Shown: piece after piece, positions 898-58,884 of the stretch | Layout of the letters: the number at the start of each line of letters is the position of its first letter | How positions within the stretch are numbered: the stretch's first letter is position 1 | Source of the DNA: Gadus chalcogrammus | Taxonomy: Eukaryota > Chordata > Actinopteri > Gadiformes > Gadidae | DNA: 64,000 nucleotides | Assembly: GCF_026213295.1 (NCBI RefSeq) | Contig: NC_079420.1 | Location: 5,380,209 to 5,444,208 of the forward strand | Direction: 5' to 3' | The notes under the pieces: model-generated | What the model saw: the letters and a program-made list of their open reading frames with translations, nothing else | What the model was told of the DNA's origin: nothing | The model's database searches: none | Made by a program: the position numbers and the translations under genes

Positions 898-15546
<14,649 letters not shown>

Positions 15547-18545
15547 CGCCCCTCGGCCCCCCAGCTCAGTCACACGCACCGGAGGCAAGGCTCTGCACAG
15601 GAAGGATCATCGCGCTGGGTCAATAAAGTGTGGTGGTGGTGGTGGTGGTAGAAGCAATACTAGTAGTGGTGGTGTTGGTGGATCGGTTCTCGGGTGAGTG
15701 TGTGTGGGGGGGGGGGACGACGACGACACTATGGTGTGAGTGACACTATTGGGCTGGGCGGATGTGGGAGGGTGGACCAGGCTGTGGAAGGCACACGAAT
15801 GCGCTTGTGGTTGTTGTGCCTGAACCTGAATTTTCGAGGAGTCATTCCAAGGCTGGCTCGGCCGCTGTTGGCACCGAAATGTCGTTGGAGAGCAGGGGGG
15901 GTGGGTATGGTTTTCGTCATGCGACAGGGATTTACCTCATTGTATTTTCTTTTGTAAGTAGGGAACCATGCGGGCTTGTACACGGGAGGAAATTATTTTA
16001 TATTTTGTAATTATGTTGATTTGGATTCTTGGTGATTGAAAGTCGGGGGCTGGTGGGGTTATGGTGGTTGTTGTTCTTATAAGGATTGTTGTTGTTGATG
16101 AACATGAGCAGAGGGGACAATTGGTTACAGGAAAAAGACAGGACGTACAGTATCCATGCTCTCTCTCGCTCTCTCTCTGTCTCTCGGTCTCTTTTGCGTT
16201 ACCAATATGGAGGACCCTTTAGTTCTGTTGTGTATTGTTTTCCGACAGACCACAGAGAGAAGTTAGACCCCAGTCTTGCCATCAAGGATATCTGATTTTT
16301 CTGAATCATTGCTCCTATGCAATCTCCAATATTTGCCTGGTCGTTGATTTCCTGGGAGGCACAATGTGGAACGGGAGTGTACAAATGAACTAATTGTTAT
16401 TTTCCATCATGTTTTGTGTAATTGCAATGACCAAGTGGCTGCCCAGTAACTGACGAATTGCTTGGCTGTAAGAACAATTTAGAATTGTTTGTATTTTCTG
16501 TTTTGTTTTTGTGGTCCTCAAATCGGTGTTTATTTGTAATTTGAACATTTTCTTTTCATTTTAAATACCTTGTCAGCAGTGTTTCTCGGTCCTACATTCA
16601 CAGTTATGGTTTACACAGAGTTGATGTTCTCCGCTGTTGACGCACACTAAGCAGGGCTTTCTGCCCTTCCCATGGTCCCGATCACTTTCAGACTCCCGAG
16701 TGGAACATGGTTAAAAAACCAACGTAAACTTCTCTGGCTTTTGTTCTTGAAAAGAGGACGGCAATAGTTTGTACAATAAATTAAACCTGTGTCTTATTTA
16801 ATGGTATGTACGTAAACGTGCTTTAGGAGTGATAGCTTTGGCCGTCATGTGTAAGCGTTTTTTTAGTTTTGCTGCCTACCTTTTTTTTGGACAGGTCGAT
16901 AGTGGGCACTATATAGTTTGGCCTCAAGTCTTGTCTTAGTAAAGTTAGTCGTGAGAAGTCTGCATCGCTTTAAGGAACACATCCAGGACAATCACATGCT
17001 CATCGCTAAGCTAAATTACGGTTCTCCAGTTAGGATGTGTCGTTATGACCATACGCACTTCACTTTGTGGTTCACTGGAGGTCTGCCATGTGCTTGCTTC
17101 TGTGCCCTTCTATATGGAGTAGTTGAGCAAATCCTGGTTTTGAACTCTGACTTTGTAAACAGGCATAGTGCGTGGGATCCATTCGGTATTAAAGAGTATG
17201 GGTTGTTGGAAAGGGAGAAGGAGTCGCCATTATACTTACACTTTTTAGCTTTGCCATGCACCACCTGCGGTCAACCAAAGCTTGGAGCTCATTCTTAAGC
17301 CATACGTGATACAGGAGCCATCTTTTAACAATGAGCTGTTTTTCATTTGGATTCTTCGGTTGTGTTAAAACAAACTCATTATTAGGGTGAACGGACAGGG
17401 ACTATTGGCATAATCCTTGTCAAAGCAAAATGTAAGACTATAAGAAGGGATGCCCTGACATTGCATTAAATAGCTTTAAAAACACGAGTGGAACTAGGCA
17501 TAGCTTGAATGTGTACAGTTGCATTAAATGGGCAGTCTGGTTTTTAAATCGGAAAATTAGCAAATAGGCAAATATGAATAAAGATGCAGCAACATATAAC
17601 GTATAGCATTTGATTGGAACTTTGATTCAATGTCTACTATGCGTGGTTCTAATTGCAAGTTTGTCAGAATAAAAACAAAAAACATTGTTTTCCAAAGATT
17701 TAAAAAGGAAGGCTGTTCTACAGGTCGTTTCGCCGTTGAATAATCCGTTTTGAGCTAGTACATACCTTGTATCCTGTGTGTGTTTGTGTGTGTAACATGA
17801 ACCCAACTGCAGATCCAGTCATTGGATCGATGCCATTTATTATTTTCTAAAGGATGTAATCCAAAACTATTGTGTTCAAAGTAGTCTTTCTAGTCTTTCT
17901 CTGCTTATAGAGTTTGTAGTCAATACGTTTTAGGACGAGGTAAAGGAATCCATTTTCTTTTTAGTCTGACATGATGTATTCTGAGAGGAAGGATATTTTT
18001 TAAAGCATTTTTTTTAAGTTTACACTGGCCAAAGAAAAAGCTGCACTGTATATATTGCATAGCCATTTATTCATTACATATTTGGCCCCCTTTTTCTTTT
18101 AATAATGTGTAACTAAATAACTACAGTTTCTAAATATCTGAAGTGTCAGTCTGTGGTCGTTCTACTGTGCTGTGTAATTCTGTCCAATTGAGAATTTACA
18201 ATGTTCTAATGAGTAGACTTGGGACTGGGGATTAAATATTGAGGAATATTCCAAATTGCACTCAATATTGACTCTGATTGTCTCTGCATTGTTAGTGACT
18301 TTAAAACAGCAATTGTCTGCACTTCGTGTAATGCAACTAACTATATAGAAATGGCAATCGTGTACACAAAACAAATCCCTGGTCCCATCTCCCTGGCGAT
18401 CAGACAAGCTTAAGCTTTTTTTTTCATTTTTTTATTGCACTTGGTTAGTTACAAGTGACTGTCCTAGATGGAAATACAAATATGAAATGCTGCTGTACCT
18501 TATTTTATAATGTTTTCAATAAAATAAACAAAAACTAGGATAAAT
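15547..18545 (+). other. ptdss2: ptdss2 3' UTR with alternative polyadenylation signals
   Basis: No other gene lies on this strand until well past 18545. AATAAA occurs at 15622-15627, 16775-16780 and 18519-18524, so short and long 3' UTRs are possible. The distal part, from about 17258, is duplicated downstream of the other tmem168 units, including the terminal AATAAA context. The tail is convergent with tmem168 copy 1, whose minus-strand AATAAA at 18673-18668 lies close to the last ptdss2 signal. Confidence 0.6.
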
Positions 18546-18959
18546 TGCCTGTGGTGCCTGGACTGAAATAGTAAGTATATACTGCTTTTATGCCACATGA
18601 TGGCAGTGTATCCCACTGTATTAGGGGCCGATTGGATAAATAATTGCAAAGATTTTCAAATCAGTTTTTTATTGCATAGCGGTCTCAATTTAGTAAATGT
18701 TATTTTGAATACGCATGCAAGCCAATTACAAATAACACCCTTTTTAAAAAAAAAACGACACTCATGTGAATATAAGTCTTACAACTGCGTCTAGCGCCAA
18801 TTTGATTTCGCGAATCCCCTTAGTAAATTAACGACTTAACCAAACGTTCTGTACTCTAAAAGTAATAAAGCATACTCATCCATTCTGTTTGGGTTTTCTT
18901 TACAAACACTCTAATCTCCCTGACTCTGAAGATCCATGCCTTTAACCGAGTGCAGGGGG

Positions 18960-21900
18960 CTAGGACCTGACCAGCTTGAAGCCCTGGCCCGTGTCTAGGA
19001 TAGCGGGCGGGAACCAGTTCAGCTTGAGCCTCCGCAGGTACCGTTGGAAGACGCCGCAGCCCCAAAACACGTCCAGGCCGCAGGCCCACAGCGCCTGCCG
19101 GACCACGGGGTAGGTGACTCTGGGGAAGTAGGTCTGCCAGTGTCTGTGGACGTCGCCCTCAGTGGGCAGGTGCAGCGAGTAGTCGCCCCAGTGGTGGGAC
19201 ACACCGTAGACAGCCGACACAGGGCGGCCCGGCTCCGACCAGTGAATGTCTGCGCCCGGGTTGCAGTTGAACACCACCCAGCGGTGGGTGAAGTCCCCGA
19301 GCTGGCCGGCGTCCTGCACCTCTGGGTATGAGGCAGGCGAGAGAGTGGCGCCCTGCACCGCCACATAGAGGCCGGAGTCCTTGACACGGCCCGCCTCCTT
19401 GGTCCAGGGAAGGGCGTTTTCCACGTCAACAACCAGGATGAGACGAGAGCAGGCCCCGGCGTTCTTCTCCCGCCACCACTTGACGATCTGGTCCAGCTGC
19501 AGGGTGTCACCGCCTGGTGGATGTGACACAGGAGGAGACGACGACACGTTACGGTCTAATGAACCTCGACCTAAATACAACTACACAAGTGAGTGTAAGA
19601 GCTAAGGTACAAAACATGTATGGGCATTTCAAACGCCATTGATAATAAATAATGGATATCGTTGATACTAATGTAAAATAGTTGTGAATACAACTGGTAA
19701 AATCAGCTGAATAAGTCGATGATCAATTTATAATGATAATCAAAGCCATTTATCAAACATTTGGTGCTTAATGTTACAGTTGAACTATCATATTTGGTTC
19801 ATAGATCATTATAAAGGGAAAAGTTTACTTTTTCTTGGTCGGTAGAAGTAAGATAAAGCCTGCACATTTAGGGAACCACTTTGGACTCGTAAGTTTGATG
19901 GCATTTTCTATTGTGACAGTTTATAGTCTGATGCAATCATTTCACCAAACCACCATGATTTGGTTAAATCTTTCGGCAATTAACTTTGGAATTTAAGGAA
20001 CGCAAATAAGCAAACGATATACTTTATAGATCCACCAGCACCACAGGGCGCCTCCAATGCGTCTGGGCTTCAGTCATCACCTGCCAGAGCCCACTCCCCG
20101 GTGCGGTGCGTGTGTCCGCTGTAGTACACGACGTAGGTGTCGTGGCGCGGGCCCTCTGCCGTCCGCTGCTCAAGGAAGCTGCAAAGCTTGGCCTGCATTG
20201 CCTCCAGGCTCAGCCCGCTGGTGGAGTAGTCGCAGCCGAAGTTCCCGATCATGTGGTGGTCGAAGAAGAGCTTCACCTTGTTCAGCATGTCCATGGAGCG
20301 CTGGTTGAGCTGCTGCACCTGGTCCGGGGGCAGCAGCATGGGCTGGCCGTCGAGGCTGGATGGGAGGGGGAGGGAGGGAGGGGGGGGGGGGGGGAGGAGG
20401 AGGAGGAGACGGTGAGCAGAGGGAGGAGGCTGAGGCTGAGTTAAACTCATCAGTTCAGTCCATTGTTACAGGGTATCAATGAAATGTTGTTAGAGCAAAA
20501 CACAGAAAGGCATAAAGTTTTAGTTGTCCATGTATACATCATTAAAATCTCCATGAATCAATCACCCATTAATTTAAACATAATAACTCCCCATAAATAC
20601 AGACTCCCCACAAATACCCCACAGTCTCCCCATAAGTACCCCATAAAGTGCTTAGTGCAATAAATAGATACATCTGATGGGGGTAGGGTTGTTGGAGTGT
20701 TTTGCAGCAATGTTCATGGCTGCTCAGTTGGTTTTGGGCAGCCATGAGCTCAAAATGTATATTCAATTCATAGTGTGAATCTCCAGAATACAAAATAATC
20801 ATGTTAAAGGTTGCATAGGTGATTTGCTTTTTTGGCCATTTTTGCAAAATTACTTGAAATCCTTATCATAACCCGCTTACAGCCACTGAGTTAGAAGTAC
20901 TGACATGAAAATTAAACTTGTCAATCATCTGTGGAACGTGCAGGGCTCGAAAAACTCCAGCCAATCATATCCATTGCCACCGAGTTTCATTGGACAGTAA
21001 GTACGTCAATCAAACGGTCGTACGGCACTCCCCCTCCCCCCCTCCCCCGCGCCCCGCGCGCGACCCCTTCGTGCAGTACTCGTGACCCAGAGCTCGTGAC
21101 CCAGAGCAAGCTCCTGTTTGTTGTTATCCTGCGGTATCTACTGGAACTAGTTAATCCACATTTGGACCTAGCAGTAGAAGACAATTTCCATGGCAGACAA
21201 GACGCCACAATCCCCACCACCACCACCACCACCAGCAAAGAGAAGGAAAACTCTTTTTCAGAGAGTAATTGATAATAAAAACGCTGAAAGAGAAAAACTG
21301 AAATCAAGAATAATCCTAGGCGCTGCTTTTGAACGTTGGCGGCAACTGAAGGACGAGAAGGGTCTAAAAACCGATGCTTGTGTGGCGGTTGACCTAGTTT
21401 CAAAGTTTATACCGTTTATACTCGGTAATACCGGTGTTGAGACGAGTGTATTACTCGGTGTGAAAATGTCCACACCGCGGCAACCCTATTGAAAACCAGG
21501 ACTTCCAATACAATTATATGAAACAAACATACATTTTCTAAAAATAGTATTGATTTATGTGACCGTTTAATGTTTATAACATCTGGTGCAACCATAGCCG
21601 CGAGAACGTATTCTCAGCAGGGGGTGCTGGAAAAAAAAACCCGGCCTGCACTAGACTCGCAACTCGTCACATTGATAAAAAAGATATATAGCAGCGCAGC
21701 TCAATTACACCAGTGCATGCGCGCACAGTTGAAAATCGATCGTTGTGTTCACTTCCTTCACACCATGGTTCACATCCAGCTGCTCACAGAACAAGTTTAG
21801 CGCACCACCGCTACCCTCACACTTTTTCATATAACCTTTTTTCAGCACTAGGACATATGAGCATTAAATAAATGCTGCGTCTCAACATGCCTTGGACAGC

Positions 21901-24396
21901 AGCGAGGATGACTCGCTTTGCCACGGGCCGAAACAGTTCGGAGCGACCACAGCCAGAGCGAACACAGCGGGGCAGAGGAGTGTCAGGAAGTCTTTGGTGT
22001 AGCCTACACAGTACGGCCTATTTGCAATACTGTTTAGTGGCAATGCAGTGTTTTATTCTATGCCTTTTTATTTTCGTATATTATTTCAATTAATACAATT
22101 TATTTATTCATGAAATCAAGATCTGGTCTTCAAATCTTTTTTCCAAATATAGGTCGTATTACAATGGGGTTTGTGTTTATATTCGGACCAATACGGTACA
22201 GCGGATGCTCACATGACGTTAAGCATTTCCTGGTGCATAATGTGACGCTTCAGAACCTAAAATCCCGTTTCTCCCCGTTGATACGACAACACATAACCGG
22301 CGTTTTCAGAAATCTCCACTTTGGTTTTTAGAAATGATCGTTTTCTGTGATAAGACAGGGCCTCGGACAGGGGGTGTTGCAGCACCCCCAAAACCCCTAC
22401 TTCCCGCGGTACTGGGTGCAATTTACAGCTGAATGTAGTGCCATGTTGTTAAACGAAAACCTACGCCAGCCTGGCTCGCGCATCTCTGTTCGCGCTCGTG
22501 CATGATTGCGCGTCCAGGTACTTGGAATGGGTGGAGTCAGAGTCAGCGTTGAAGGGGAGGGGGTAGGACCATTTGAGTTGTGTATTTTCAAAATCTGCTG
22601 GCGTTTCGCAAATCGCGTACCCAACCTTTAAGTTAAGATATTTAAGCAAATCAATATAGCCCCAGTATGTTGGAAATAGCTAAAGAAGAATGAGATGTCA
22701 AATCTTCTATGAACCAATCCTTCAACTGCTTTTTCCTATACTGTTCATAGATTAAGTCATTGGCTGGCTTTCTAAAAGGTGTAGGACAGCTTATGTGTGG
22801 GCACCGACTACCTGGAATTAGTGGGGATGACCACAGCGTAGCCAACGCAGGTTCCCCCCAGACTGTTGCCCAACTCGTGGAATAGCCCGTGGAAGAGGGA
22901 CTCCAAGAGCAGCACCAGCAGGGACACACTGATGGAGAGGCTGCAGACCGACTGGGGAGAAAGACGGGGAGGCACTTTCAAGTCAGGGAAACTTCAGGCT
23001 GAAACCAAATGTGCAAAAAGGGCCCCTATTTTACCGCCAAATGTGAGTTATCAGATGTATTGACTAAGGACCTTTTGGACTGTATCAACTGGTTGATTGG
23101 AGCCACCCATCCCAAATCCGGCTGGACACTGCAATTTGTGATGTCCCCAACGTTTTGAAATGTAGACGCTTTAAATGACTCATTGACTAACCTCACAACT
23201 GGTTGTAAAATGGGGGCAAAATGCATTATATTATATGCAATAATTCAGCCTACCATCCATGCCAGAACTGCCATCATGAGGGTGGACAGCAGCGTCAATT
23301 GAACGAGGCTTTGTGAGATGAGGCAGAAGTGTCGCACGCCTTTGGATGCCATGACCTTGTCTAGACTGTTGAACCCTGACCCCTGGGCCAAGCACACTCT
23401 CTGGCAGGCGCTGATTTTGGTGTGGAAGCCCCATAAGGTGATTAAGAACACAAGGTGGATGATGCCCCAGAAGAGCATGCAGACCACGAAGGCTGGAATC
23501 ATCAGGTACAACGGCCCCCCGTCCGACAGCTTAGACGCGGCCAGAACGAGGAACGTCACCTCAACCACCAGCAGTAGGGGAAGGAGGGACAGCCGTCGCC
23601 AGCGTCCAGCCGCCAGGAACGGCTGCCAGCGCTCGGTCACAGACGAGACGCTGAAGTAGCAGTCGAGTAGAGGGTCGCACATGAGTTGGCTCAAGAAACA
23701 CGCCAAGGCAAACTGGTTGTTGGACACGTCCAGGCCCTTGATGAACAGGAATTCGCCGGCGAAGACGAAGACGAAGGCGAAAACTACTAGGTCGGGAATT
23801 GTGAGGACAGCTTTCACCCGAAAAACTACCATCAGTACCGCCAGCGCACCGACAAACACCGCCACACTCGGAGAGCTGCTGACCACGAATGACACGACGC
23901 CAAAGCCGACCAGTTCCATACGCTCCGCCGTGGTGAGGAAAGCCGGACGGTACTTTGCGCATCCGCATATCCGCTCCAGCAGAGCCCAGAGAGTTCTGAG
24001 AACCATACTAGTCAAGAGCAAGTAGTTGGTGGTCTGCTCCTTCACGCCGTGGTCGAGGGCAGGACTACCCACGAAGCACAGGAGACCCAACAGAGACCCC
24101 CGCCACAGGTGGATCAGACTTTGGCTGACTTTCTCCATGTGGAAGTAACAGTGAAGTGCAATCGCTAATCCAAGGACAACGAGGGCCAAAACGAAGATGA
24201 TGAGCATGTTGGCCTCTTGGCTGATTTCCCATCGTGCATATATCCCGAGGCAGATCGCCACCAGCAGACTGACGCGGGACAGAAGGTCCAGGGCCCGCAT
24301 GGAGGAGCGGATGGTCGCCTCTCCACGGAGCTCCTGCAGCCGGGCCATGGCTGCGCGCATGCAGTGGGTGACGCCGTAGCGCATAAAGCGGCACAT
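18960..24396 (-). CDS. tmem168: transmembrane protein 168, tandem copy 1
   Basis: Multi-pass membrane protein of poorly known function, reported at the nuclear envelope/ER in mammals. Exons in coding order: 24396-23254, 22951-22812, 20355-20081, 19513-18960; all introns are GT-AG and the join gives 703 codons plus TAG (human 697). Exon 1 encodes the N terminus MCRFMRYGV and about nine hydrophobic segments; exon 2 the last membrane segment and [20 protein letters not shown]. Exons 3 and 4 encode a soluble domain with [34 protein letters not shown] and the terminal [12 protein letters not shown]. The start is the ATG aligning with the human start; the open frame extends 15 codons further without an earlier ATG. 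Near residue 214 a GAAGAC-type coding repeat lengthens one membrane segment by four residues relative to copy 3. Intron 2 (2456 bases) contains a TTAA-flanked transposon. The frame is intact. Confidence 0.93.
20808..22627 (+). mobile_element. TTAA-flanked DNA transposon (Kolobok/piggyBac-type target site)
   Basis: A 1820-base insertion found only in tmem168 copy 1 intron 2. It is flanked by TTAA at 20804-20807 and 22628-22631, with terminal inverted repeats AGGTTGCATAGGTGATTTGC and AGGTTGGGTACGCGATTTGC. Unit 2 shows the empty site. Removing the element and one TTAA leaves a 632-base intron, against 637 in copy 2 after the same correction. A residual open frame lies at 21190-21492. TTAA duplications occur in Kolobok and piggyBac; the fish distribution and terminal AGGTTG favour Kolobok, an inference. 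Confidence 0.85.
21190..21492 (+). CDS. short open frame inside the TTAA transposon (element-encoded fragment)
   Basis: One hundred codons starting MADKTPQS, followed by a proline run, a basic KRRK patch and a helical segment with [19 protein letters not shown]. It starts with a good ATG and lies wholly within the transposon, so it is probably the first exon or remnant of an element gene rather than a host gene. I do not assign a catalytic domain, and no transposase core is visible in the rest of the insert. Confidence 0.4.
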   Translation: MADKTPQSPPPPPPPAKRRKTLFQRVIDNKNAEREKLKSRIILGAAFERWRQLKDEKGLKTDACVAVDLVSKFIPFILGNTGVETSVLLGVKMSTPRQPY

Positions 24397-26890
24397 GCCC
24401 TCTCCGTGCAGCACACGACCTCGAAGAAAACGCCGGCTCACCGTGAAAAAAAAAAGTAATTCTCTCGATTCTTACTAGGTTATGTGAGCAACCATACCAT
24501 GGCCAGCCGTTAGATCTGACAGCTCATTGGTTATCATAACCTAACTCGAATGTTGGGTTTCGTTTTTGTCGAAGGACGGAGCTATCTGATGGGACGCGCC
24601 GTGTCATTTGTGCATGTCGGGAAATTCCCCAAACCCATTTCATCATCTTTGGCAAAGTGTAATTTGTGAAGTTATATCGTGTCCTAAAGTAACTTAGGAG
24701 TACCGAAAGCTTTGGTCTGACGACATCCTTCAGGTTGGCTACAGCAAGAACGTGGAGTCAATGTTTGTCCCAAAACGTTATAACACACACGCATTAGGTT
24801 TCATAGGACACAAGCCCTGCTCTCCAGAATTGATAACGAAAAACTCTCTCAGATGCGCTCACGAGACGGCCGTGTATGATGTTACCATAAGTTATTCTTG
24901 ACTATTGAAAGTGTCTTCCCAAGGAGACAGCTCTCCCCTGGCCTCTTCCCATTTGCAACACTAAGAGCTCGTTGATATTTGGTCGGTGGCAAGATTATAT
25001 GAAAAAGGAGGCATAAAAGCACCGTTACAGCTAATTATTAGAAAATGCTTCAGTAAAAAGACTTCAATCACCACAAAGGTATTGACACGTTGAAGAACAG
25101 AGGGAGGTTAGAAAACAATTTGTTTAGATTTTTTTGTATAACTTTCGTTTTATTCAAAAACGGGTCAGGACTTGGTCAGAAACGAAAACGAAAGAAAGCG
25201 TGTGCAGATGGCGTGCTCCCTGCGTTGTTTAGGCAGAACCGATTTTCCGGTATGGTTCGGACGGGCAGTATGACTCACACATGCGGATTTATTAGTTCTT
25301 ACTGCAGTCAGGCCAGAGGCTTGACACGCAAACGGCTTCTCCGGTGCTGCAGCTAGATAGTAGGCTACTCATTCAAACCTGCGCCACCAAGTTGAATTAA
25401 TTAGTTAGGGTGGCCTGACCTGAGCCAAAGGCAAGCTCCACCACAGTTTGTGTTGGTTGTTTTTTTGTTGCAGACAAGTGTCGGATGTAGAAACAAATAG
25501 CCTATGATCTAAATAATTTTCCATCATGTAGGCTATTTCTTTTTTCTTTGATATGCCTCAAATCGGAATCGGGCCTGCTCAATCTGCAATGTGAATTGCC
25601 TTGGATAGTGGTTCTAATGCAGATGGAGGAGACAACTAATGAGACACATGACATGTAACATACTTTCTAAAAATGGAACCATTAGCACACCTTGTTCTGC
25701 AATGTCAAAATACTTTGTAAAGCATTGTTGTAATGCAAGCGGACCAATGTCAACACTGGAAGACAAATGCAACCACAAAAAAAACCCAAATAAGATCACT
25801 TTTTTTCTCGCCAGTACAGTGATAATACAGGTGATATCAGCAGATAAATTCGTATTTGCTTGCGAAAGACCAGAGGGAATGCAGTAGTTATTAAATGTGT
25901 AAAACCTATCCTGTTAACCATGCACCACCTGCGGTCATCCAAAGCTTGGAGCTCATTCTTAAGCCATACGTGATACAGGAGCCATCTTTTAACAATGAGC
26001 TGTTTTTCATTTGGATTCTTCGGTTGTGTTAAAACAAACTCATTATTAGGGTGAACGGACAGGGACTATTGGCATAATCCTTGTCAAAGCAAAATGTAAG
26101 ATTACAAGAAGGTATGCCCTGACATTAGGCCTAGGCCTAAAAACACGAGTGGAACTAGGCATCGCTTGAATGTGTACAGTTGCATTAATCAGTCTGGTTA
26201 ATCCCATGATTAGATTTAGAAGTCTAAAAAAGGAACCTAATAACTTGATGTCAACTGGTTTTAAATTGGAAAAATTTGATAAAATGGATAAATCGTGTAC
26301 ACAAAACAAAGCCCTGGTCCCGTCTCCTTGGCGATCAGACAAGCTTAAGCTTTTCTTTTTTTTTTTCACTTGGTTAGTTACAAGTGACTGTCCTAGATGG
26401 AGATACAAATATGAAATGCTGCTGTACCTTATTTTATAATGTTTTCAATAAAATAAAGGATAAATTGCCTGTGGTGCCTGGACTGAAAAAGTAAGTAGGC
26501 CTATTTAGCCTACTGCTTTTATGCCACATGGTGGCAGTTTATCCCACTGTATTAGGGGCCGATTGGATAAATAATTGCAGAGATTTTCAAATCAGTTTTT
26601 TATTGCATTGCGGTCTCAATTTAGTAAATGTCATTTTGAATATGCATGCAAGCCAATTACAAATAACACCCTTTAAAAAAAAAAAAAGACACTCATGTGA
26701 ATATAAGTCTTAGAACTGCGTCTAGCGCCAATCTCAATTCGCGAATCCCCTTCTTAAATTAACAACCAAACGTTCTGTACTCCAAGTAATAAAGCATACT
26801 CATTCATTCTGTTTGAGTTTTCTTTACAAACACTATAATCTCCCTGACTCGGAAGATCCATGCCTTTAACCGAGTGCAGGGGGCTAGGAC

Positions 26891-27360
26891 CATAGACATA
26901 GCAATGCATAGACGGAGCATTGGCTGCTGGGACGCAAGAAATACGGCCGCCATCTTGGAGTGGTCAACCGGGAGCAGCAACAGCAGCAGAAACAGGATGC
27001 CGGGCTGTTGTTCAGCGTATTCCTGCTCAAATCGGCGGACCATCCACAATAGGAATCGGGGGATTACTTTTCACAAGTAAGATTTGACATTACCGTACTA
27101 TTGCTATAATTGGTATTGAATAATAAAACACGCCAAACCATGTGGCCTTTATCATAGCTACACGTATGACAAAAAACCGCATGAAAATCAGTGGTATTCA
27201 GTGAGGTATGATTAATTAAATGCGCTGACAGTTCATTGCTCCAGCCAAACGGATTACACTGAGTGGAGCGGATGACCACTCCAAGATGGCGGCCCCGCGT
27301 CTCGTCGGCGCCAGTAGGCGGTAGCATTCGATGCTCCGTCTATCATATAAGATGTCTATG
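26891..27360. mobile_element. hAT-like non-autonomous transposon at the tmem168-2 stop codon
   Basis: A 470-base insertion absent from copies 1 and 3. Ends are CATAGACATA and its inverse, TGTCTATG. A further inverted match (TAGACGGAGCAT, CCATCTTGGAGTGGTC and their complements) runs about 90 bases inward on each side. Flanked by an 8-base duplication GCTAGGAC at 26883-26890 and 27361-27368. Eight-base duplications are typical of hAT elements. No transposase is encoded. Confidence 0.8.
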
Positions 27361-27361
27361 G

Positions 27362-40009: not shown

Positions 40010-40360
40010 GTTGTAGGCCTACCCCTGTCAACGTTTTTGCGTGGATCCGAACCTGAGCTGTTTAAAGTGTTAACCTCCGATCTTATCAATGCACCATCAA
40101 CACACCGAATAAAGTCATCACAATGGTTATACTTGACTTTATAATTTGCATGAAATAGAAATAAGAGTCTTCCAAGAGAGGACATCAACCGGACTTGAAA
40201 CCCGGTCTCCAGGGGGTTAGTTCACAGCTCTCTCCACTTCCCACTGAAATGTATAGTTTAATTATCTCTGAGGTTATATTTGACAATGCAATAGACATGA
40301 TAGCATTACGTTTAAAATTAAAGAAATTGTGTTTTCCTCAGAAATTGGGTTAGGGTTACG
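40010..40360 (-). repeat. tRNA-like dimer module 2 inside the minisatellite
   Basis: Same first tRNA-like block as module 1 (B-box-like GGTTCGGATCC, minus strand, about 40109-40039). The second block (40250-40185) reads CAGTGGGAAGTGGAGAGAGC and ends in GGGTTTCAAGTCC, a B-box-like element. The second blocks of modules 1 and 2 differ enough to be separate derivatives. Confidence 0.4.
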
Positions 40361-42588
40361 ACAGTGTTACCGTTTACGTTTCATTTGATAAAAACGACAG
40401 TGTAACCCCTTATATTTTATTTGACAAGGACACATTTTTTTTTTTCAAATATGTTTATTTTCATGACAACTAATAAAATACGACAGTGTTACCCCTTATA
40501 TTTTATTCGACAAAGACAACAGTGTTAGACCTTATGTTTTTATTCATGACGACCAATAAAAAAACAACAGTGTTACCCATTATGTTTTTTTTCATGACGA
40601 CCAATAAAAAACAACAGTGGTACCCCTTATGTTTTTTTTTGCATGACGAACATAAAAAACAACAGTGTTACCCCTTATGGTTTTTTTCATGACGACCAAA
40701 AAAAAACGACAGTGTCACCCCTCATATTTCATTTGATAAAAACGACAGTGTTACCCCCTATGTTTTAATTGATAAATATCGACAGTTTTACCCCTTATAT
40801 ATGTAATAGACATGTTACCCCTTATGTTTATTTCATGACGGCCGATAAAAAACAACACTGTTACCCCTTATGTTTTTATTCATGACGACCAATAAAAAAA
40901 CAACAGTGTTACCCATTATGTTTTTTTTCATGACGACCAATAAAAAACAACAGTGTTACCCATTATGTTTTTTTCATGACGACCAAAAAAAAACGACAGT
41001 GTCACCCCTCATATTTCATTTGATAAAAACGACAGTGTTACCCCCTATGTTTTAATTGATAAATATCGACAGTGTTACCCCTTATATATCCAATATATAT
41101 ATATGCAATAGACATGTTACCCCTTATGTTTATTTCATGACGGCCGATAAAAAACGACAGAGTTACCCCTTATGTTTTTTTTTCATGACGACCAATAAAA
41201 AACGACAGTGTTACCCCTTGTGTTTTTTTTCCTGACGACCAATAAAAATAGAACAGTGTTACCCCTTATGGTTTTTTTCATGACGACCAAAGAAAAACGA
41301 CAGTGTCACCCCTCATATTTCATTTGATAAAAACGACAGTGTTACCCCCTATGTTTTAATTGATAAATATCGACAGTGTTACCCCTTATATATCCAATAT
41401 ATATGTATGCAATAGACATGTTACCCCTTATGTTTATTTCATGACGGCCGATAAAAAACGACAGAGTTACCCCTTATGTTTTTTTTTCATGACGACCAAT
41501 AAAAAACGACAGTGTTACCCCTTGTGTTTTTTTTCCTGACGACCAATAAAAATAGAACAGTGTTACCCCTTATGTTTTTTTTCATGACGAACATAAAAAA
41601 TAACAGTGTTACCCCTTATGGTTTTTTTCATGACGACCAAAAAAAAACGACAGTGTCACCCCTCATATTTCATTTGATAAAAACGACAGTGTTACCCCCT
41701 ATGTTTTAATTGATAAATATCGACAGTTTTACCCCTTATATATGTAATAGACATGTTACCCCTTATGTTTATTTCATGACGGCCGATAAAAAACAACACT
41801 GTTACCCCTTATGTTTTTATTCATGACGACCAATAAAAAAACAACAGTGTTACCCATTATGTTTTTTTTCATGACGACCAATAAAAAACAACAGTGTTAC
41901 CCATTATGTTTTTTTCATGACGACCAAAAAAAAAAGACAGTGTCACCCCTCATATTTCATTTGATAAAAACGACAGTGTTACCCCCTATGTTTTAATTGA
42001 TAAATATCGACAGTGTTACCCCTTATATATCCAATATATATATATGCAATAGACATGTTACCCCTTATGTTTATTTCATGACGGCCGATAAAAAACGACA
42101 GAGTTACCCCTTATGTTTTTTTTTCATGACGACCAATAAAAAACGACAGTGTTACCCCTTGTGTTTTTTTTCCTGACGACCAATAAAAATAGAACAGTGT
42201 TACCCCTTATGTTTTTTTTCATGACGAACATAAAAAATAACAGTGTTACCCCTTATGTTTTTTTTCATGACGACCAAAGAAAAACGACAGTGTCACCCCT
42301 CGTATTTCATTTGATAAAAACGACAGTGTTACCCCCTATGTTTTAATTGATAAATATCGACAGTGTTACCCCTTATGTTTTTTTTCATGACGACCAATAA
42401 AAAACGACAGTGTTACCCCTTATTTTTCATTTGATAAAAACAACAGTGTTACCCCTTTTTTTTTTTTTCATGACGACCAAAGAAAAACAAAAGTGTTCAC
42501 CCGTTATGTTTTATTTGATAAATATCGACAGTGTTACCCCTTATGTTTATTTCATGCAGCCAATAAAAAATGACAGTGGTACCCCTGT

Positions 42589-42807
42589 CGACGTTTTCGC
42601 AGGGATCCGTACCTGAGCTGTTTAGAGTGTCCGAACTTTTCAATGCACCTTCAATACACAGAATAAAGACATCAGAATGGTTATACTTGACTTTATAATA
42701 CGCATGAAATTGAAATAAGAGACTTCCAACAGTGGACATCAACCGGACTTGAACCCCGGTCTCCAGGGGGTTAGCTCACAGCTCTCTCAACTTCCCACTG
42801 AGATTAG
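42589..42807 (-). repeat. tRNA-like dimer module 3 at the end of the minisatellite
   Basis: The first block is degenerate (42601-42660). The second block (42806-42736, minus strand) reads CTCAGTGGGAAGTTGAGAGA and ends in GGGGTTCAAGTCC, the best B-box match of the three modules. It abuts duplication unit 3 directly. Confidence 0.4.
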
Positions 42808-44330
42808 TAAGCATTTTTTTTAAGTTTACACTGGCCAAAGAAAGAGCTGCACTGTATATATTGCCTAGCCATTTATTCATTACATATTTGGCCCCCTTTT
42901 TCTTTTAATAATGTGTAACTAAATACAGTTTCTAAATATCTGAAGTGTCAGTCTGTGGTCGTTCTACTGTGCTGTGTAATTCTGTCCAATTGAGAATTTA
43001 CAATGTTCTAATGAGTAGACTTGGGACTGGGGATTAATTATTGAGGAATATTCCAAATTGCACTCAATATTTACTCTGATTGTCTCTTCATTGTTAGTGA
43101 CTTTAAAACAGCAATCATCTGCACTTCGTGTAATGCAACTAACTATATAGAAATGGCAATCGTGTACACAAAACAAATCCCTGGTCCCATCTCCTTGATG
43201 ATCAGACAAGCTTAAGCTTTTTTTTTTTTGGATTTGTTACAAGTGACTGTCCTAGATGGAAATACAAATATGAAATGCTGCTGTACCTTATTTTATAATG
43301 TTTTCAATAAAATAAACAAAAACTTGGATAAATTGCCTGTGGTGCCTGGACTGAAAAAATAAGTATTTACTGCTTTTATGCCACATGGTGGCAGTGTATC
43401 CCACTTTATTAGGGGCCGATTGGATAAATAATTGCACAGGTTTTGAAATCGGTTCTTTATTGCATAGCGGTCTCAATTTAGCAAATGTCATTTTGAATAG
43501 CATGCAAGCCAATTAAAAATAACACCCCTTTTTAAAAAAAAAAACGACACTCACGTGAATATAAGTCTTACAACAACTACGTCTAGTGCAATTATTAAAG
43601 GTTTTCCTGGAATTCCCTGAAGTTGGAATAGTTATAAAAGGTATCCCCAAAAGCATAAAATATATTTATGAAGTATTTAATTGGAGAAAATAGATCGGGT
43701 GTATTTTCATTAACCCATTGCACTTATTATATACTGGTAACAGGGATTCTTGGACTCTTTACAAAATACATTCACTGTAAAGTTTGTTCCAAATAGAAGA
43801 ATCGGTTGTTGGATTCCCAAGAGGAATCTATACACATATTATACACGTATTAAATAAGCATAAGCTGTGCAGGTGTGCCTTTGGAGAAGCTATAAACTGT
43901 TACAGAACAGTGTGTTTGCAAGGAGTATGGCGTCACAAGGCCGTTGTATGCTTTAGTCAAAGCAAGTTTGTTACTAGTTCTTTGGTGATACTACAGTACA
44001 AAAGAAGGCACTGGTCTAAGTGAATGCCAGCGATAACCGATCATGTCGAATACAACATTGCAATTCAATTGAAGAGCCCATATTATAACCAACATGTGTA
44101 TGCTCTTCTTTAGTCGGTGGCGACATCAAGATCCCAAACAATGACGTCTAACTGGCATGTGCGCAAACATAAAACCAAAACAATGAAATAAGTGAACACA
44201 CTAAAACCCCAATCAGTAACTTTGTAAATTAACGACTTAACCAAACGGTCTGTACTCTATAAGTAATAAAAACACACTCATCCATTCTGTTGGGTTTTCT
44301 TTACAAACACTCTAATCTCCCTGACTCTTA

Positions 44331-44824
44331 GGGTGCACTCACACTAGGCCATCTGGCCGTGGCCGTGGCCGTTTACACACCTAACCGTGCTCAAATCTGC
44401 CAGTGTGAGTGTGGCCAGTCTGGCCAGGCCAATTTGGCCACTTGGGAGAGGTGTGCTGCTACGGTACGGGCCGCTACGGTACAGATGCTAATGAGCCGAC
44501 ACGCGCGCACGCACGGCTACGCAGCCTGAGCTGGATGACGTATAGTCCATGCGACGACCACGGACATAATAAAGGCGACGAGCCTTCTTTCCCATTAAAC
44601 GGTAAACATCGCGTCAAGCGGTTCAACTGTTGGTGTGTTCTCTGTGTTGTTGTCCATTGTTGTTAAAACTCTGACTGGCGGCAGACTTTATTATGGTCCA
44701 TGCAGCGGACGCTTGGTGATGACGTGTTAAGACGTGATGACGTATGTACAAGAGCCTACCTTGGCCCAGGCCACAGTTGCGACGGCCAACGGCCACGGCC
44801 AGATGGCCTAGTGTGAGTGCAGCC
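44331..44824. mobile_element. PIF/Harbinger-like non-autonomous transposon
   Basis: A 494-base insertion just 3' of tmem168 copy 3. Inverted ends GGGTGCACTCACACTAGGCC and GGCTGCACTCACACTAGGCC, extending through GGCCGTGGCCG. Target duplication TTA at 44328-44330 and 44825-44827, typical of Harbinger. The copy 1 site (GACTCTGAAGATCC) is empty. No transposase is encoded. Confidence 0.8.
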
Positions 44825-44857
44825 TTAAGATCCATGCCTTTAACCGAGTGCAGGGGG

Positions 44858-47800
44858 CTAGGACCTGACCAGCTTGAAGCCCTGGCCCGTGTCTAGGATA
44901 GCGGGCGGGAACCAGTTTAGCTTGAGCCTCCGCAGGTACCGTTGGAAGACGCCGCAGCCCCAAAACACGTCCAGGCCGCAGGCCCACAGCGCCAGCCGGA
45001 CCACGGGGTAGGTGACTCTGGGGAAGTAGGTCTGCCAGTGTCTGTTGACGTCGCCCTCAGTGGGCAGGTGCAGCGAGTAGTCGCCCCAGTGGTGGGACAC
45101 GCCGTAGACGGCCGACACGGGGCGGCCCGGCTCCGACCAGCGAATGTCGGCGCCGGGGTTGCAGTTGAACTCCACCCAGCGGTGGGTGAAGTCCCCGAGC
45201 TGACCCGCGTCCTGCACCTCTGGGTCGGAGGCGGGCGAGAGAGTGGCGCCCTGCACCGCCACATAGAGGCCGGAGTACTCGCGGCCCGCCTCGACACGGC
45301 CCACCTCCTTGGTCCAGGGAAGGGCGTTTTCCACGTCAAGAACCAGGATGAGACGGGAGCAGGCCCCGGCGTTCTTCTCCCGCCACCACTTGACGATCTG
45401 GTCCAGCTGCAGGGTGTCACCGCCTGGTGGATGTGACACAGGAGGAGACGACGACACGTTACGGTCTAATGAACCTCGACCTAAATACAACTACACAACA
45501 AGTGAGTGTAAGAGCTAAGGTACAAAACATGTATGGTCATTTGAAATGCTATTGATCAATTATGTGCATCGTTGATAAATAAATAGGAAAGGTTGTCAGG
45601 GTTACAAACTAATGTCAAATAATTGAATAGCTCAGCTCAGGCACGTATACAAATAAGTGCTCATACTACTCGTAGGTTAAGATACTGTAGCACTAAGTTA
45701 TCAGAGCTGAATACTGTAAGATTCAATGTCGATCGACCAAAAATTAATTGTTTATTTTGATAAGCTATTAAGCCATTTATCAAACATTTGGTGGTTAATG
45801 TTGCAGTTGGATTTACATTAGTGGTGGGCATAGATTTTTTTTTTTTTAAATAGATTAATCTAGATACATTTTGGAATTAATCTAGATTAAAATGGCAAAC
45901 AGCAAAAAATCCTTTTGTTTACCTTGACAGCTGTCAATTATATGGCAACGGTGAATTATCAAATATAATTCACAGCCGTAAGTTGTGAAGTGCCCATGCA
46001 AGTGAACGGAGCATAAACAAAAATAGTTGACAGCTGAACGTTGGGAAGGCCCATGCAAGTGAATGGAGCAGTCTACAGCAATGAGAAGATCCGTGTAATA
46101 ATCCATAATAATGTAAGGTTTAGAAGTTAAATATTTGAAAGTTGTAGAATGAATTAATATAATTTATATTGGAGTTAATTTGCTAGAAATGTACTTACAA
46201 TGTTTAGTCAGTTAATCATTTACATATTAATGTCACAATTATTACTTAGATATTTACATGTTTACATATTTAACACAGTCAGGATATTCTGTTGAATCTG
46301 CCGATTCCCTCACGTTTACCTCAGTCTAAATTCTAGCTTCTGATTGGTTAGTTCGGTCACGTGATGGGTCCGAACAAGGAAATGTTTGAAAATAGATTAA
46401 CCGCGATATTTTTTTTTATCGCCCGATAAAAGTTTTGCGTTAACGCCGATAACGGCCCACCACTAATTTACATATTTGCTTCAGATAATTATAAAAGGAA
46501 ATGTTCACCTTTTCTTAAAGCAAGCACATTTAATGAACCACTTTGGACCTGTAAGTTTGAGGTCATTTGCTATAGTCTAAAATTATTAAGTGCAATATAA
46601 CCATTCGAGTAATCAATCCAAAAAAATCGTTACTAGTTGCAGCACTACAATCATTTCGCCCAAAAAATAATAATCTTTCGGCAATTAATGTCAGACTTTA
46701 TAGAGTCACCAGCACCACAGGGCACCTCCAATGCGTCTGAGCTTCAGCCTGCTCACCTGCCAGAGCCCACTCCCCGGTGCGGTGCGTGTGTCCGCTGTAG
46801 TACACCACGTAGGTGTCGTGGCGCGGGCCGTCGGCCGTCCGCTGCTCCAGGAAGCTGCGCAGCTTGGCCTGCATGGCCTCCAGGCTCTGCCCGCTGGTGG
46901 AGTAGTCGCAGCCGAAGTTCTCGATCATGTGGTGGGCGAAGAAGAGCTGCACCTTGTTCAGCATGTCCGTGGAGCGCTGGTTGAGCTGCTGCACCTGGTC
47001 CGGGGGCAGCAGCATGGGCTGGCCGTCGAGGCTGGATGGGAGGGGGAGGGCGGGGGAGACGGTGAGCTGAGGGAGGAGGCTGAGGCAATCCCTTTACTCA
47101 ACTCATGGCTGCTCACTTGGTTTTGAGCCCTTGCGTTCTCGCATGATGCACATCAAAATGGTATATAATATTCATAGTGCGAGTCTCCAAAAAATGTGAT
47201 TAAGATGAGATATTTTAAGCAAATTAATTTCCAGATGTTTGCCTACAGGAGTTGAAGTTTTTTAGAGGAATGAGATAATGTCCAATATTATTTTCTACCA
47301 ATCCTAAAATACCTTTTTACTGCTTTTTCCTATACTGTTAATAGATGAAGTAATTGGCTGGCTTACTAAAAGGTGTAGGACAGCTTATGTGTGGGCAACG
47401 ACTACCTGCAGTAATTAGTGGGGATGACCACAGCGTAGCCCACGAGGGTTCCCCCCAGACTGTTGCCCAACTCGTGGAATAGCCCGTGGAAGAGGGACTC
47501 CAAGAGCAGCACCAGCAGGGACACACTGATGGAGAGGCTGCAGACCGACTGGGGAGAAAGAGGGGGAGGCACTTTCAAGTCAGGGCAACTTCAGGCTGAA
47601 ACCAAATGTGCAAAAAGGGCCCCTATTTTACCACCAAATGCGAGATATCAGATGTATTGACTAAGGACCTTATGGACTGTATCAACATGTTGATTCGAGC
47701 CACCCATCCCACATCCGGCTGGACACTCCAATTTGTGATGTCCCCAACATTTTGAAATGTAGACGCTTTAAATGACTCAGTGACTAACCTCACAACTGGT

Positions 47801-48981
47801 TGTAAAATGGGGGCAAAATGCATGATATTGTATGCAATAATTCAGCCTACCATCCATGCCAGAGCTGCCAAAATGAGGGTGGACAGCAGCGTCAATAGAA
47901 CGAGGCGTTGTGAGATGAGGCAGAAGTGTCGCACGCCTTTGGATGCCATGACCTTGTCTAGACTGTTGAACCCTGACCCCTGGGCCAAGCACACTCTCTG
48001 ACAGGCGCTGATTTTGGTGTTGAAGCCCCATAAGGTGATTAAGAACACCAGGTGGATGATGCCCCAGAAGAGCATGCAGACCACGAAGGCTGGAATCATC
48101 AGGTACAACTGGCCCCCGTCCGACAGCTTAGACGCGGCCAGAACGAGGAACGTCACCTCAACCACCAGCAGTAGGGGAAGGAGGGACAGCCGTCGCCAGC
48201 CTCCAGCCGCCAGGAACGGCTGCCAGCGCTCGGTCACAGACGAGCCGCTGAAGTAGTAGTCGAGTAGAGGGTCGCACATGAGTTGGCTCAAGAAACACGC
48301 CAAGGCAAACTTGTTGGTGGACACGTCCAGGCCCTTGATGAACAGGAATTCACCGAAGAAGGCGAAGCCGACTAGGTTGGGAATTGTGAGGACAGCTTTC
48401 ACCCGAAGAACGACCATCAGTACCGCCAACGCACCGACAAACACCGCCACACTCGGAGAGCTGCTGACCACGAATGACACGATGCCAAAGCCGACCAGTT
48501 CCATCCGCTCCGCCGTGGTGAGGAAAGCCGGACGGTACTTTGCGCATCCGCATATCCGCTCCACCAGAGCCCAGAGAGTTCTGAGAACCATACTAGTCAA
48601 GAGCAAGTAGTTGGTGGTCTGCTCCTTCACGCCGTGGTCGAGGGCAGGACTACCGACGAAGCACAGGAGACCCAACAGAGACCCCTGCCACAGGTGGATC
48701 AGACTTTGGCTGACTTTCTCCATGTGGAAGTAACAGTGAAGTACAATCGCTAATCCAAGGACAACGAGGGCCAAAACGAAGATGATGAGCATGTTGGCCT
48801 CTTGGCTGAGTTCCCATCGTGCATATATCCCGAGGCAGATCGCCACCAGCAGACTGATGCGGGACAGATAGTCCAGGGCCCGCATGGAGGAGCGGATGGT
48901 CGCCTCTCCACGGAGCTCCTGCAGCCGGGCCATGGCTGCGCGCATGCAGTGGGTGACGCCGTAGCGCATAAAGCGGCACAT
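44858..48981 (-). CDS. tmem168: transmembrane protein 168, tandem copy 3 (probable ancestral position)
   Basis: Exons in coding order: 48981-47851, 47548-47406, 47031-46757, 45423-44858; GT-AG introns, 704 codons plus TAG. All landmarks are kept: MCRFMRYGV start, [93 protein letters not shown]. It has a four-residue insertion (VEAGREYSG) after the LPWTKEV segment compared with copies 1 and 2. Intron 2 is only 374 bases; intron 3 is 1333 bases because of a hAT-like insertion. It lies next to bmt2 in the same orientation, as in human 7q31. Confidence 0.93.
45819..46465. mobile_element. hAT-like non-autonomous transposon
   Basis: A 647-base insertion in tmem168-3 intron 3. Terminal inverted repeats TAGTGGTGGGC and GCCCACCACTA, with an 8-base duplication ATTTACAT at 45811-45818 and 46466-46473. 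Internal GATTAATCTAGAT and TTAACGCCGATAACGG motifs are of the kind common in short fish hAT elements. No transposase is seen. Confidence 0.88.
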
Positions 48982-51000
48982 GCCCTCTCCGTGTAGCACA
49001 CGACCTCGAAGAAAACGCCGGCTCACCGTGTCATTTTAAAGTAATTGTCTTGATTCTCCGTCTGTTAGGTGAGCCATGGCCAGCCTTTATGGAGTTAGAT
49101 CTGACAGGTCATCGGTTAGCATGAGTAGCTAACCTAACTTTTAATGTTGGGTATTTGACGGAGGACGGAGCCATCTGGTGTGACGCGAGTGGCCGTTTCA
49201 TATTCGTGCATGATGGGTAATGCCCCAAAGCAGTTTCATCAATTTTAGCAAAGTGTCATTCGTAAAGTAATGTCGCTTCCTGAAGTAAGTTAAGTGCGCC
49301 GAAAGTTTTGGTCAGATGACATCCGTCAGAGTTACTACGGCAAGAGCGTAGAGTCAAGTTTAGTTCGGCTCAAAACGTAATAACGCACACATTGGGTTTC
49401 ATTGGACACAAACCCTGCTCTACATTTATAACGACAAACTTTCTCAGATGCGCTCACGAGACGGCCGTGTATGATGTTGTCAGAAGTGAACCTTGACGTC
49501 TATTGAAAGTGTCTTCCCACGGAGACAGCTCTCCCCTGGACTTTCCATTGCAACACCAAGTATTTGTTGATATTTGGTCGGTGGTCACACTTGTAGATTA
49601 TGAGTGGTGAAAAAAGAGGCATAAGGCACTTTTAACTGCTTATTATTACAAAATGCTGCAATAAAAACACTTCTATCAGCACAGAGGTATGGACATGTTG
49701 AACACATGGAGGGTTGTGGAAAATAATTTCATTTTTTTTCCCTATACTGTTAATAGATGAAGTCATTGGCTGGCTTTCTAAAAGGTGTAGGACAGCTTAT
49801 GTGTGGGCACCGACTACATGATGACCGGTTTTTAAAAAAAAAAAACGGTCATCATGACTGTCAAAAACGAAAAAGAAAGCAGATTGCATATGCTCGCTGC
49901 GTTGTGTTTAGGTAGAACCTGTTTTCCGCTATGGCTCGGGCAATATGACATTCACACATGCGGATTTATTAATTCTTTACTGCAGTCATACCAGATGCTT
50001 GACACGCAAACGGGTTCTCCGGTGGTGCATAGCAGCAGCAGTCGAACCTATGCTACCAAGTTGAATGAATGAGTTGGGGGTGGGGGTCAAGGGTCAAGCT
50101 CCGCTCAAGTTTGACTGTGTTGGGTTGGGTATTAGTTGCAGAAGTGTCGAATGAGGAACTGATTATGATCCAAATAATTTACCATCATGTATTATTTATT
50201 TTTTTATCTGATAGCCTGGTCTCAAATTGGAATCGGGACCACTCAATCTACAATGTGAATTTAACCCTGGATAGTGGTTCTTATGTAGATGGAGGAGACA
50301 ACTAATGAGACACGGACACATGACATGTACAATACTTTATAAAAATGGAACCATAAGCACACCTTGTTCTGCAATGTCAAAATACTTTGTAAAGCATTGT
50401 TGTAATGCAAGCGGACCAATGTCAACACTGGAAGACAAATGCAACCACTTATCACAAAATAAGATCACTTTTTTTCTCGTCAGTACAGTGAAAATACAGG
50501 TGATATCAGCAGAGAAATTCGTATTTGCTGGCGAAAGACCAGAGGGAATGCAGTAGTAGTTATTAAATGAGGAAAACCTATCCTGTAAACCAACAATATA
50601 TTTTAACAATCAACTTTGGACAATGTAGAATTTCACAAAGGGTGTTCATATATTCATAAATACTTTTCAAGGGGGTGTGAATAGTCTCCCAACACAAACA
50701 TGGAGAAGGCACCTCAGAAGATTGGATATTCTATAATGAACACGGTCATGATTAGGACACGGAGATGAATCGGCCTCAAAGTACCCTTGTAGATATTAAA
50801 AGTAAAGCGCCATCAGCAAGCTGTGACAGCATGTATTCAAAATTCAACAATCACTCTTATTTAACACACACAACTTCAGCCACTCGTTGCCTGTTAAAGG
50901 GAACACAGTACAGGCCTTCACACGACATTTCAAGCTAGTGTTTTTTTTCTATCAAAGATTAGATTTTGTTGGCTATTGCTAACATAAATTTGCCTCTAAG

Positions 51001-52143: not shown

Positions 52144-58884
<6,741 letters not shown>

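What the first reader, a model, noticed from the sequence alone, without database searches (positions are those of the whole stretch)
17258..51000. Tandem triplication of tmem168 with one broken remnant
Three complete four-exon genes (703, 683 and 704 codons) and a fourth exon fragment lie in one orientation where vertebrates I know of have one gene. Copies differ by substitutions, in-frame indels and different transposons, so they are not assembly duplicates. Copy 3 borders bmt2 as in human, so copies 1 and 2 are probably derived.
Basis: partly seen in the sequence, partly recalled or inferred. Interest (0 to 1): 0.75.

Follow-up and report, generated by a model that had tools for sequence, protein, structure and literature searches.

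The report
Cod-genus tandem array of tmem168 genes
Alaska pollock very probably carries three open side-by-side copies plus a broken piece of the membrane-protein gene tmem168; at least one of the extra copies has a counterpart in Atlantic cod, and the copies evolve at different speeds.

Summary
Three four-exon tmem168 genes (703, 683, 704 codons) and a 3' exon-4 fragment lie in one orientation at 17.2-51.0 kb, beside bmt2/samtor exons. Copy 1 is letter for letter a listed protein of Gadus chalcogrammus, so the window is almost surely Alaska pollock. Copy 2 has a 95.7% identical counterpart in G. morhua; all six Gadus sequences group apart from Lota lota (one listed sequence). The duplications thus look older than the Gadus split and younger than the split from Lota, and an assembly artefact is unlikely. 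Copy 3 is the conservative, ancestral-like copy; copies 1 and 2 evolve faster, yet a neutral model is rejected for copy 1 and weakly for copy 2. Copy 2 lost the ancestral start codon and has about 17 rewritten C-terminal residues; its G. morhua counterpart is listed from the same methionine with nearly the same block. Coding and much non-coding DNA give discordant relationships, suggesting gene conversion. Beyond the finding, two AlphaFold models of moderate confidence put a caspase-like fold in the C-terminal half of TMEM168; a histidine motif is invariant in 73 of 73 aligned sequences, but the cysteine position is valine in all three copies. Expression and whole-genome copy number are untested.

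The parts
18960..24396 (-). Copy 1 (c1), tmem168b-like, 703 codons; coding exons 24396-23254, 22951-22812, 20355-20081, 19513-18960
   Evidence: single open frame after splicing; GT-AG introns (exon 3/4 boundary moved one base); identical to listed protein P0001 of Gadus chalcogrammus
27362..32140 (-). Copy 2 (c2), 683 codons from a downstream ATG; ancestral ATG lost; C-terminal block rewritten; coding exons 32140-31061, 30759-30617, 28894-28617, 27912-27362
   Evidence: 95.7% identical to P0004 of G. morhua, which is listed from the same methionine
44858..48981 (-). Copy 3 (c3), 704 codons, conservative copy next to bmt2; coding exons 48981-47851, 47548-47406, 47031-46757, 45423-44858
   Evidence: fewest derived residues against Lota; shortest branch
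33852..34020 (-). Broken remnant: last 169 bp of exon 4, cut inside the exon
   Evidence: 33818-34020 is 99.5% identical to copy 3, 33769-34020 is 98.0% identical to copy 1; end of similarity before the next unit at about 34020-34040
33419..33851 (-). 3' flank of the remnant
   Evidence: matches to 43732-43998, 44149-44218, 44279-44328 and 44824-44857 of unit 3
17249..25917 (.). Tandem unit 1 (3' flank, copy 1, 5' flank)
   Evidence: self-comparison; right junction at 25917/25918 with a shared CC
25918..33413 (.). Tandem unit 2 (3' flank, copy 2, 5' flank whose match reaches further upstream than that of unit 1)
   Evidence: 32859-33131 is 97.4% identical to 50331-50603 of unit 3
34040..34599 (.). 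Left end of tandem unit 3, separated from the rest of the unit by an insertion
   Evidence: 94.9% to 17249-17542; 94.4% to 25919-26271 for 34046-34404
34600..42808 (.). About 8.2 kb without a match in units 1 and 2: open frame 35254-35964 that looks gag-like by eye, and 36- to 47-bp tandem repeats at about 37.1-42.6 kb
   Evidence: no Pfam family above its cut-off for the open frame
42809..50994 (.). Remainder of tandem unit 3 with copy 3
52147..59034 (-). bmt2/samtor exons, the neighbour of copy 3; exon-bearing open frames near 59034-58621, 55612-55367, 54916-54695, 53997-53740, 52878-52147; not spliced, intactness not tested
   Evidence: Pfam Bmt2 on the last exon frame, E 0.0012, 19.1 bits, just under its cut-off of 20; the other exons recognised by eye and recall in open frames
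8504..9094 (+). Open frame with an exon of a phosphatidylserine synthase gene, the other neighbour
   Evidence: Pfam PSS, E 5.6e-9, 36.4 bits, cut-off 25

Best explanation
This is a tandem array of tmem168b, shared at least in part by other Gadus, made by at least two segmental tandem duplications between a phosphatidylserine synthase gene and bmt2. The units hold the coding exons, some 3' flank and about 1.3-1.5 kb of 5' flank in units 1 and 2 (shown in sequence; the events are inferred). Copy 3 keeps the ancestral role (inferred). Copies 1 and 2 still encode near full-length membrane proteins under relaxed but not absent constraint; copy 2 is furthest along, with a shortened N terminus and a rewritten C-terminal stretch (shown in sequence, effect inferred). 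Gene conversion reshuffles exons among copies (supported, not proven). The protein is a multi-pass membrane anchor with a C-terminal caspase-like domain (predicted) that in all three copies lacks the cysteine, so it most likely acts as a non-catalytic module; extra copies would alter dosage or partition expression (inferred).
For: Three open genes and one fragment. Copy 1 is identical to a listed G. chalcogrammus protein and copy 2 has a counterpart in G. morhua. Tree of 13 proteins: the six Gadus sequences together at 100/100, Lota outside, copy 2 with G. morhua_684 at 98/98. Relative rates against Lota: copy 1 against 3, 23:7, p 0.0035; copy 2 against 3, 45:11, p 5.5e-6. Codon model on 658 codons: one omega 0.43, lnL -3300.63 against -3309.85 neutral; free branches 0.29 (c1), 0.49 (c2), 0.80 (c3); fixing c1 or c2 neutral costs 7.8 or 2.9 log units. 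Exon 4 pairwise omega 0.23-0.30. Conversion: copy-unique site classes differ between coding and non-coding DNA (chi-square 59.1); c1- and c2-unique codons are clustered (29 runs against 43.4 expected, P 0.00125); G. morhua P0003 agrees with copy 1:copy 2 at 16:11 of 30 diagnostic sites in exon 1 but 10:29 of 46 in exons 2-4, Fisher p 0.0099.
Against: No transcript evidence was available, and no promoter or untranslated first exon was located. The free-omega model is only 1.7 log units better than one omega, so the branch omegas do not differ significantly from one another; c3's omega cannot be told from 1, and the c2 test (p about 0.016) is weak. Pairwise omega in exon 1 is 0.79 (c1-c3) and 1.05 (c2-c3), and in exon 3 0.92 for c2-c3. 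With synonymous codons alone the clustering is not significant (P 0.096). The chi-square treats sites as independent, includes the rewritten block and mixes constraint with conversion. Non-coding regions do not all agree: by mismatch, units 1 and 3 are closest in the 3' flank and units 2 and 3 in the distal 5' flank. At sites where P0003 is derived against Lota it is 6:6 between copies 1 and 2 in exon 1 and 1:19 after it, so its exon 1 is mixed rather than copy-1-like. Copy 2's lost start could equally be decay.
Confidence: 0.6

Rival explanations
1. Copies 1 and 2 are unexpressed duplicates on the way to becoming pseudogenes; open frames persist because they are young, helped by conversion from copy 3.
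For: Faster evolution of both, exon 1 omega near 1 for copy 2 against copy 3, lost ancestral start and rewritten C-terminal block in copy 2, a truncated remnant in the same array.
Against: Neutral evolution rejected for copy 1 (2 delta lnL 15.6) and weakly for copy 2 (5.8); exon 4 omega 0.23-0.30; the copy-2 frame is open over 683 codons here and its G. morhua counterpart is listed with 684.
Confidence: 0.3
2. Assembly artefact: haplotypes or one locus laid out three times.
For: No reads were available to check.
Against: 5-9% non-coding mismatch between units, distinct insertions and junctions, and a separate counterpart of copy 2 listed for another species.
Confidence: 0.02
3. An older array, shared by more gadiforms or teleosts, whose copies look young because of gene conversion or were lost elsewhere.
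For: Copies per genome were not counted in other fish; 90% clusters hide similar members and only 120 of 447 or 464 matches were listed; conversion can erase age.
Against: The six Gadus sequences exclude Lota with 100/100 support; the listed Lota and Muraenolepis clusters have one member sequence each.
Confidence: 0.08

Closest known systems
TMEM168 / tmem168b family (vertebrate multi-pass membrane protein, 697 residues in mouse per PMC5638853 passage)
   Same: Alignment over 96-100% of the query with 61-70% identity to listed tmem168 entries of non-gadid teleosts; neighbour bmt2 (human gene order recalled).
   Different: Three open copies in tandem; copy 2 lacks the first 12 residues of the other copies; valine in place of the common cysteine at c1 position 550.
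Tandem gene arrays of codfishes (antifreeze glycoprotein, haemoglobin and innate immune genes; titles and abstract starts seen, details recalled)
   Same: Head-to-tail units, sharp junctions, mosaic relationships among copies, a truncated remnant.
   Different: A gene with no known environmental role; no copy number data by population or species.
Caspases (clan CD cysteine peptidases), structure only
   Different: 5-11% sequence identity; Foldseek itself gives nothing at E 0.001 or better (best 0.099); moderate to low model confidence there; cysteine absent in the gadiform sequences; joined to a many-helix membrane region.

Membership tests
TMEM168 | End-to-end sequence homology to named TMEM168 proteins | tested here: met
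   447 matches for copy 3 and 464 for copy 2, best 120 listed each; the listed rows that bear a name say TMEM168, or hypothetical, uncharacterized or unnamed
TMEM168 | Position next to bmt2/samtor as in human | tested here: met
   copy 3's start codon lies 3.2 kb from the last bmt2 exon frame, same strand; Bmt2 profile just under its cut-off on that exon alone; human order recalled
tmem168b rather than tmem168a | Closer to teleost b than a sequences | tested here: inconclusive
   several listed entries carry the name 168b and none 168a, but only 120 of 447 were listed and no 168a sequence was identified
Tandem segmental duplication | Head-to-tail repeat of coding and flanking DNA with junctions | tested here: met
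Functional protein-coding duplicate (copy 1) | Open frame with splice sites and purifying selection | tested here: met
   neutral branch rejected, 2 delta lnL 15.6
Functional protein-coding duplicate (copy 2) | Open frame with splice sites and purifying selection | tested here: inconclusive
   frame open from a downstream methionine and splice sites present; neutral branch only weakly rejected, 2 delta lnL 5.8
Functional protein-coding duplicate (copies 1 and 2) | Transcription and translation | not testable with these tools
   no expression data held
Caspase-like (clan CD) fold | Fold match of the domain | tested here: met
Active clan CD peptidase | Catalytic His and Cys | tested here: not met
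   His motif present, but the Cys position is Val in all three copies
Active clan CD peptidase | Peptidase family profile match | tested here: not met
   no Pfam peptidase family for P0001, P0005, P0008 or P0086 up to E 10; no PDB sequence match at E 1 with a 73-sequence profile

The most novel reading that the evidence does not exclude
TMEM168 is an unrecognised family of membrane-tethered caspase-fold proteins. Most aligned spiny-rayed fishes have a His-Cys pair, while other lineages have Val, Thr or Ser at the Cys position. In cods, where it is Val, the gene has multiplied into an array of three diverging pseudo-proteases that exchange exons by gene conversion, with copy 2 taking on a new role.
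Probability: 0.3. Interest if true: 0.65.

Novelty: new member of a known kind. Interest (0 to 1): 0.36.

Why it matters
It gives a fairly recent, well-marked natural experiment: one conservative copy beside two faster copies of a gene whose cellular role is little known, in commercially important cods. If the caspase-like fold is right, it also offers a structural handle on TMEM168, which a review ties to SCN5A surface regulation and glioblastoma growth (PMC10627164, passages read), and suggests testing it as a pseudo-protease scaffold.

Tried and rejected
Assembly duplication: judged unlikely from divergence, junctions and a counterpart in another species. One tree for whole units: rejected, because pooled non-coding DNA puts units 1 and 2 together (5.1% against 9.0 and 9.2%) while coding DNA puts copies 1 and 3 closest (3.3% against 4.9 and 6.3%). 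A three-way alignment of whole units was unreliable in introns (some windows 36-44% identical), so pairwise local alignments were used. Base composition showed no clear CpG island upstream of exon 1 in the three units. ARAGORN and Rfam scans of the window: none. Profile search against solved-structure sequences: none at E 1. NCBIfam for P0001 and P0008: none. Weak Pfam matches to Tweety, DUFs and others lay below cut-offs and were set aside. Literature, listings only unless said: 55 papers hold 'tmem168', 40 listed; 0 hold 'tmem168a'; 0 hold both 'tmem168' and 'gadus'; 0 hold both 'tmem168' and 'caspase-like'; others (15 of 16 listed; 5 of 5; 8 of 665; 2 of 2; 6 of 273) showed nothing on this array in the titles and abstract starts seen. 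PMC5638853 was searched for six terms; PMC12292546 and PMC10627164 were seen as passages. Rows dropped before counts: the rewritten C-terminal block of copy 2 was left out of the codon models, pairwise rates and run tests but not; gapped columns were left out as each comparison needed. The structure alignments used 73 of 121 listed proteins and 66 of these, without gadiforms and Lepidogalaxias.
Full report
What is there. The window holds three open genes and one fragment of tmem168 on the minus strand. All introns are GT-AG once the exon 3/4 boundary is shifted by one base. The repeat is segmental: self-comparison shows units between 17249 and 50994 that include 3' flank, exons, introns and 5' flank. 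The remnant at 33419-34020 is about 430 bp of 3' flank plus the last 169 bp of exon 4, cut inside the exon. Junctions are sharp: unit 1 to unit 2 at 25917/25918 with a shared CC; unit 2 to remnant at about 33413/33419; remnant to unit 3 at about 34020/34040. About 8.2 kb without a counterpart in units 1 and 2, much of it tandem repeats, splits the left end of unit 3 from its remainder.

Where it comes from. Copy 1 is identical over 703 residues to a protein listed as transmembrane protein 168-like of Gadus chalcogrammus on a 26.49 Mb sequence. The window is therefore almost surely Alaska pollock; identity in a sister species cannot be fully excluded.

How old and how wide. Besides that protein, the nearest listed relatives are one G. 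macrocephalus and two G. morhua sequences, then Lota lota at 83% identity to copy 3. In a tree of 13 proteins the six Gadus sequences form a clade at 100/100 with Lota outside; copy 3 branches first (the other five together at 95/93), and copy 2 pairs with G. morhua_684 at 98/98. Taken at face value, the duplications came before these Gadus species split and after the line to Lota left; conversion could make them look younger than they are. The four Gadus clusters hold 17, 1, 6 and 5 member sequences, whose species I could not see; the Lota and Muraenolepis clusters hold one each. Copies per genome were not counted in any species, and the whole-genome tool did not complete.

Which copy is ancestral. 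Of 680 columns aligned in all three copies and Lota, 591 do not vary among the copies; 38 are derived in copy 2, 16 in copy 1, 6 in copy 3; 5 derived states are shared by copies 1 and 3, 4 by copies 1 and 2, none by copies 2 and 3, and 20 are unresolved. Relative-rate tests reject equal rates for copy 1 against 3 (23:7, p 0.0035), copy 2 against 3 (45:11, p 5.5e-6) and, weakly, copy 1 against 2 (21:38, p 0.027) (the rewritten block of copy 2 is included). Copy 3 also sits beside bmt2 exons.

Are copies 1 and 2 genes or decay? A three-branch codon model with one omega gives 0.43 and beats neutrality by 9.2 log units. Free branch values are 0.29 for copy 1, 0.49 for copy 2 and 0.80 for copy 3, but the free model gains only 1.7 log units over one omega, and copy 3's value is not different from 1 (lnL -3298.95 against -3299.03). 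Forcing copy 1 neutral costs 7.8 log units, copy 2 only 2.9. Constraint looks uneven: pairwise omega is 0.67-1.05 in exon 1, 0.38-0.92 in exon 3 and 0.23-0.30 in exon 4; exon 2 has too few changes (0.18-1.44). Copy 2 carries ATC at the ancestral start and one inserted base before the next in-frame ATG, and about 17 C-terminal residues differ wholesale from copies 1 and 3. Its G. morhua counterpart is listed from the same methionine and carries nearly the same block; a listed start is not proof of translation, and I did not see its DNA. I take both copies as genes under relaxed constraint, with decay of one or both as the main rival.

Mosaic history. Pooled non-coding DNA groups units 1 and 2 (5.1% against 9.0 and 9.2%), and both lack about 625 bp of 3' flank (43594-44219) that unit 3 has whole and the remnant in part. 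The regions do not all agree: introns 2 and 3 and the proximal 5' flank put units 1 and 2 closest, but by mismatch units 1 and 3 are closest in the 3' flank (3.8% against 4.6 and 5.9%) and units 2 and 3 in the distal 5' flank (4.7% against 6.5 and 11.4%), over partly different sites. Coding DNA makes copies 1 and 3 closest (3.3%, against 4.9 and 6.3%). Classes of copy-unique sites (unit 1, 2, 3) differ between coding (44, 72, 19) and non-coding (51, 46, 112) DNA, chi-square 59.1, and 45.8 without the 5' flank. Codons unique to copy 1 or to copy 2 are clustered: 29 runs against 43.4 expected, P 0.00125; with synonymous codons alone 13 against 17.1, P 0.096. The remnant and copy 3 are 99.5% alike over 203 bp. 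In G. morhua, P0003 agrees with copy 1 at 16 and copy 2 at 11 of 30 diagnostic sites in exon 1, but with copy 1 at 10 and copy 2 at 29 of 46 in exons 2-4, Fisher p 0.0099; counting only states derived against Lota it is 6:6 and then 1:19. Gene conversion among copies explains this best; unequal selection contributes and was not separated from it.

Verdict. A real tandem array shared at least in part by other Gadus: ordinary in kind, good as a marked case of unequal duplicate fates. The more unusual lead is the caspase-like domain of the TMEM168 family, which came from studying it.

Changes made on checking: bmt2 is no longer called intact; the sizes of the remnant's flank and of the shared gap were corrected; regional non-coding results and the small gain of the free-omega model were added; copy 2 was moved to inconclusive in the selection test; odds were lowered slightly (best 0.62 to 0.60) and those of decay and of an older array raised for these reasons.

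Noticed in passing
window 18960-22951 (copy 1 residues about 406-697) and the equivalent exons 2-4 of copies 2 and 3: TMEM168 C-terminal half models as a caspase-like fold with an invariant SGH motif; the cysteine position varies among the aligned fishes and is Val in the gadiform ones.
   Followed up: partly
P0006 (Lepidogalaxias salamandroides) and P0077 (Muraenolepis): The Lepidogalaxias protein groups with the gadiform Muraenolepis (94/93) and shares the gadiform Val, unexpected for a basal euteleost (placement recalled); convergence, contamination or mislabelling are open.
   Followed up: no
window 37101-42586: A 5.5 kb array of 36- to 47-bp tandem units with higher-order repeats of about 304 and 350 bp, within the stretch that splits unit 3.
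   Followed up: no
window 53929-54502: A 37-bp tandem array that overlaps the start of the open frame holding a bmt2 exon.
   Followed up: no
window 21178-21489: Open frame in a part of copy 1's intron 2 without counterpart in the other units; looks like part of a mobile element gene by eye; no Pfam family above cut-off.
   Followed up: no
P0003, C terminus: The G. morhua 703-residue entry ends in six extra residues after the usual RS, as if the normal stop codon were changed.
   Followed up: no
window 15225-15353: A perfect GT dinucleotide run of 64.5 units left of the array.
   Followed up: no
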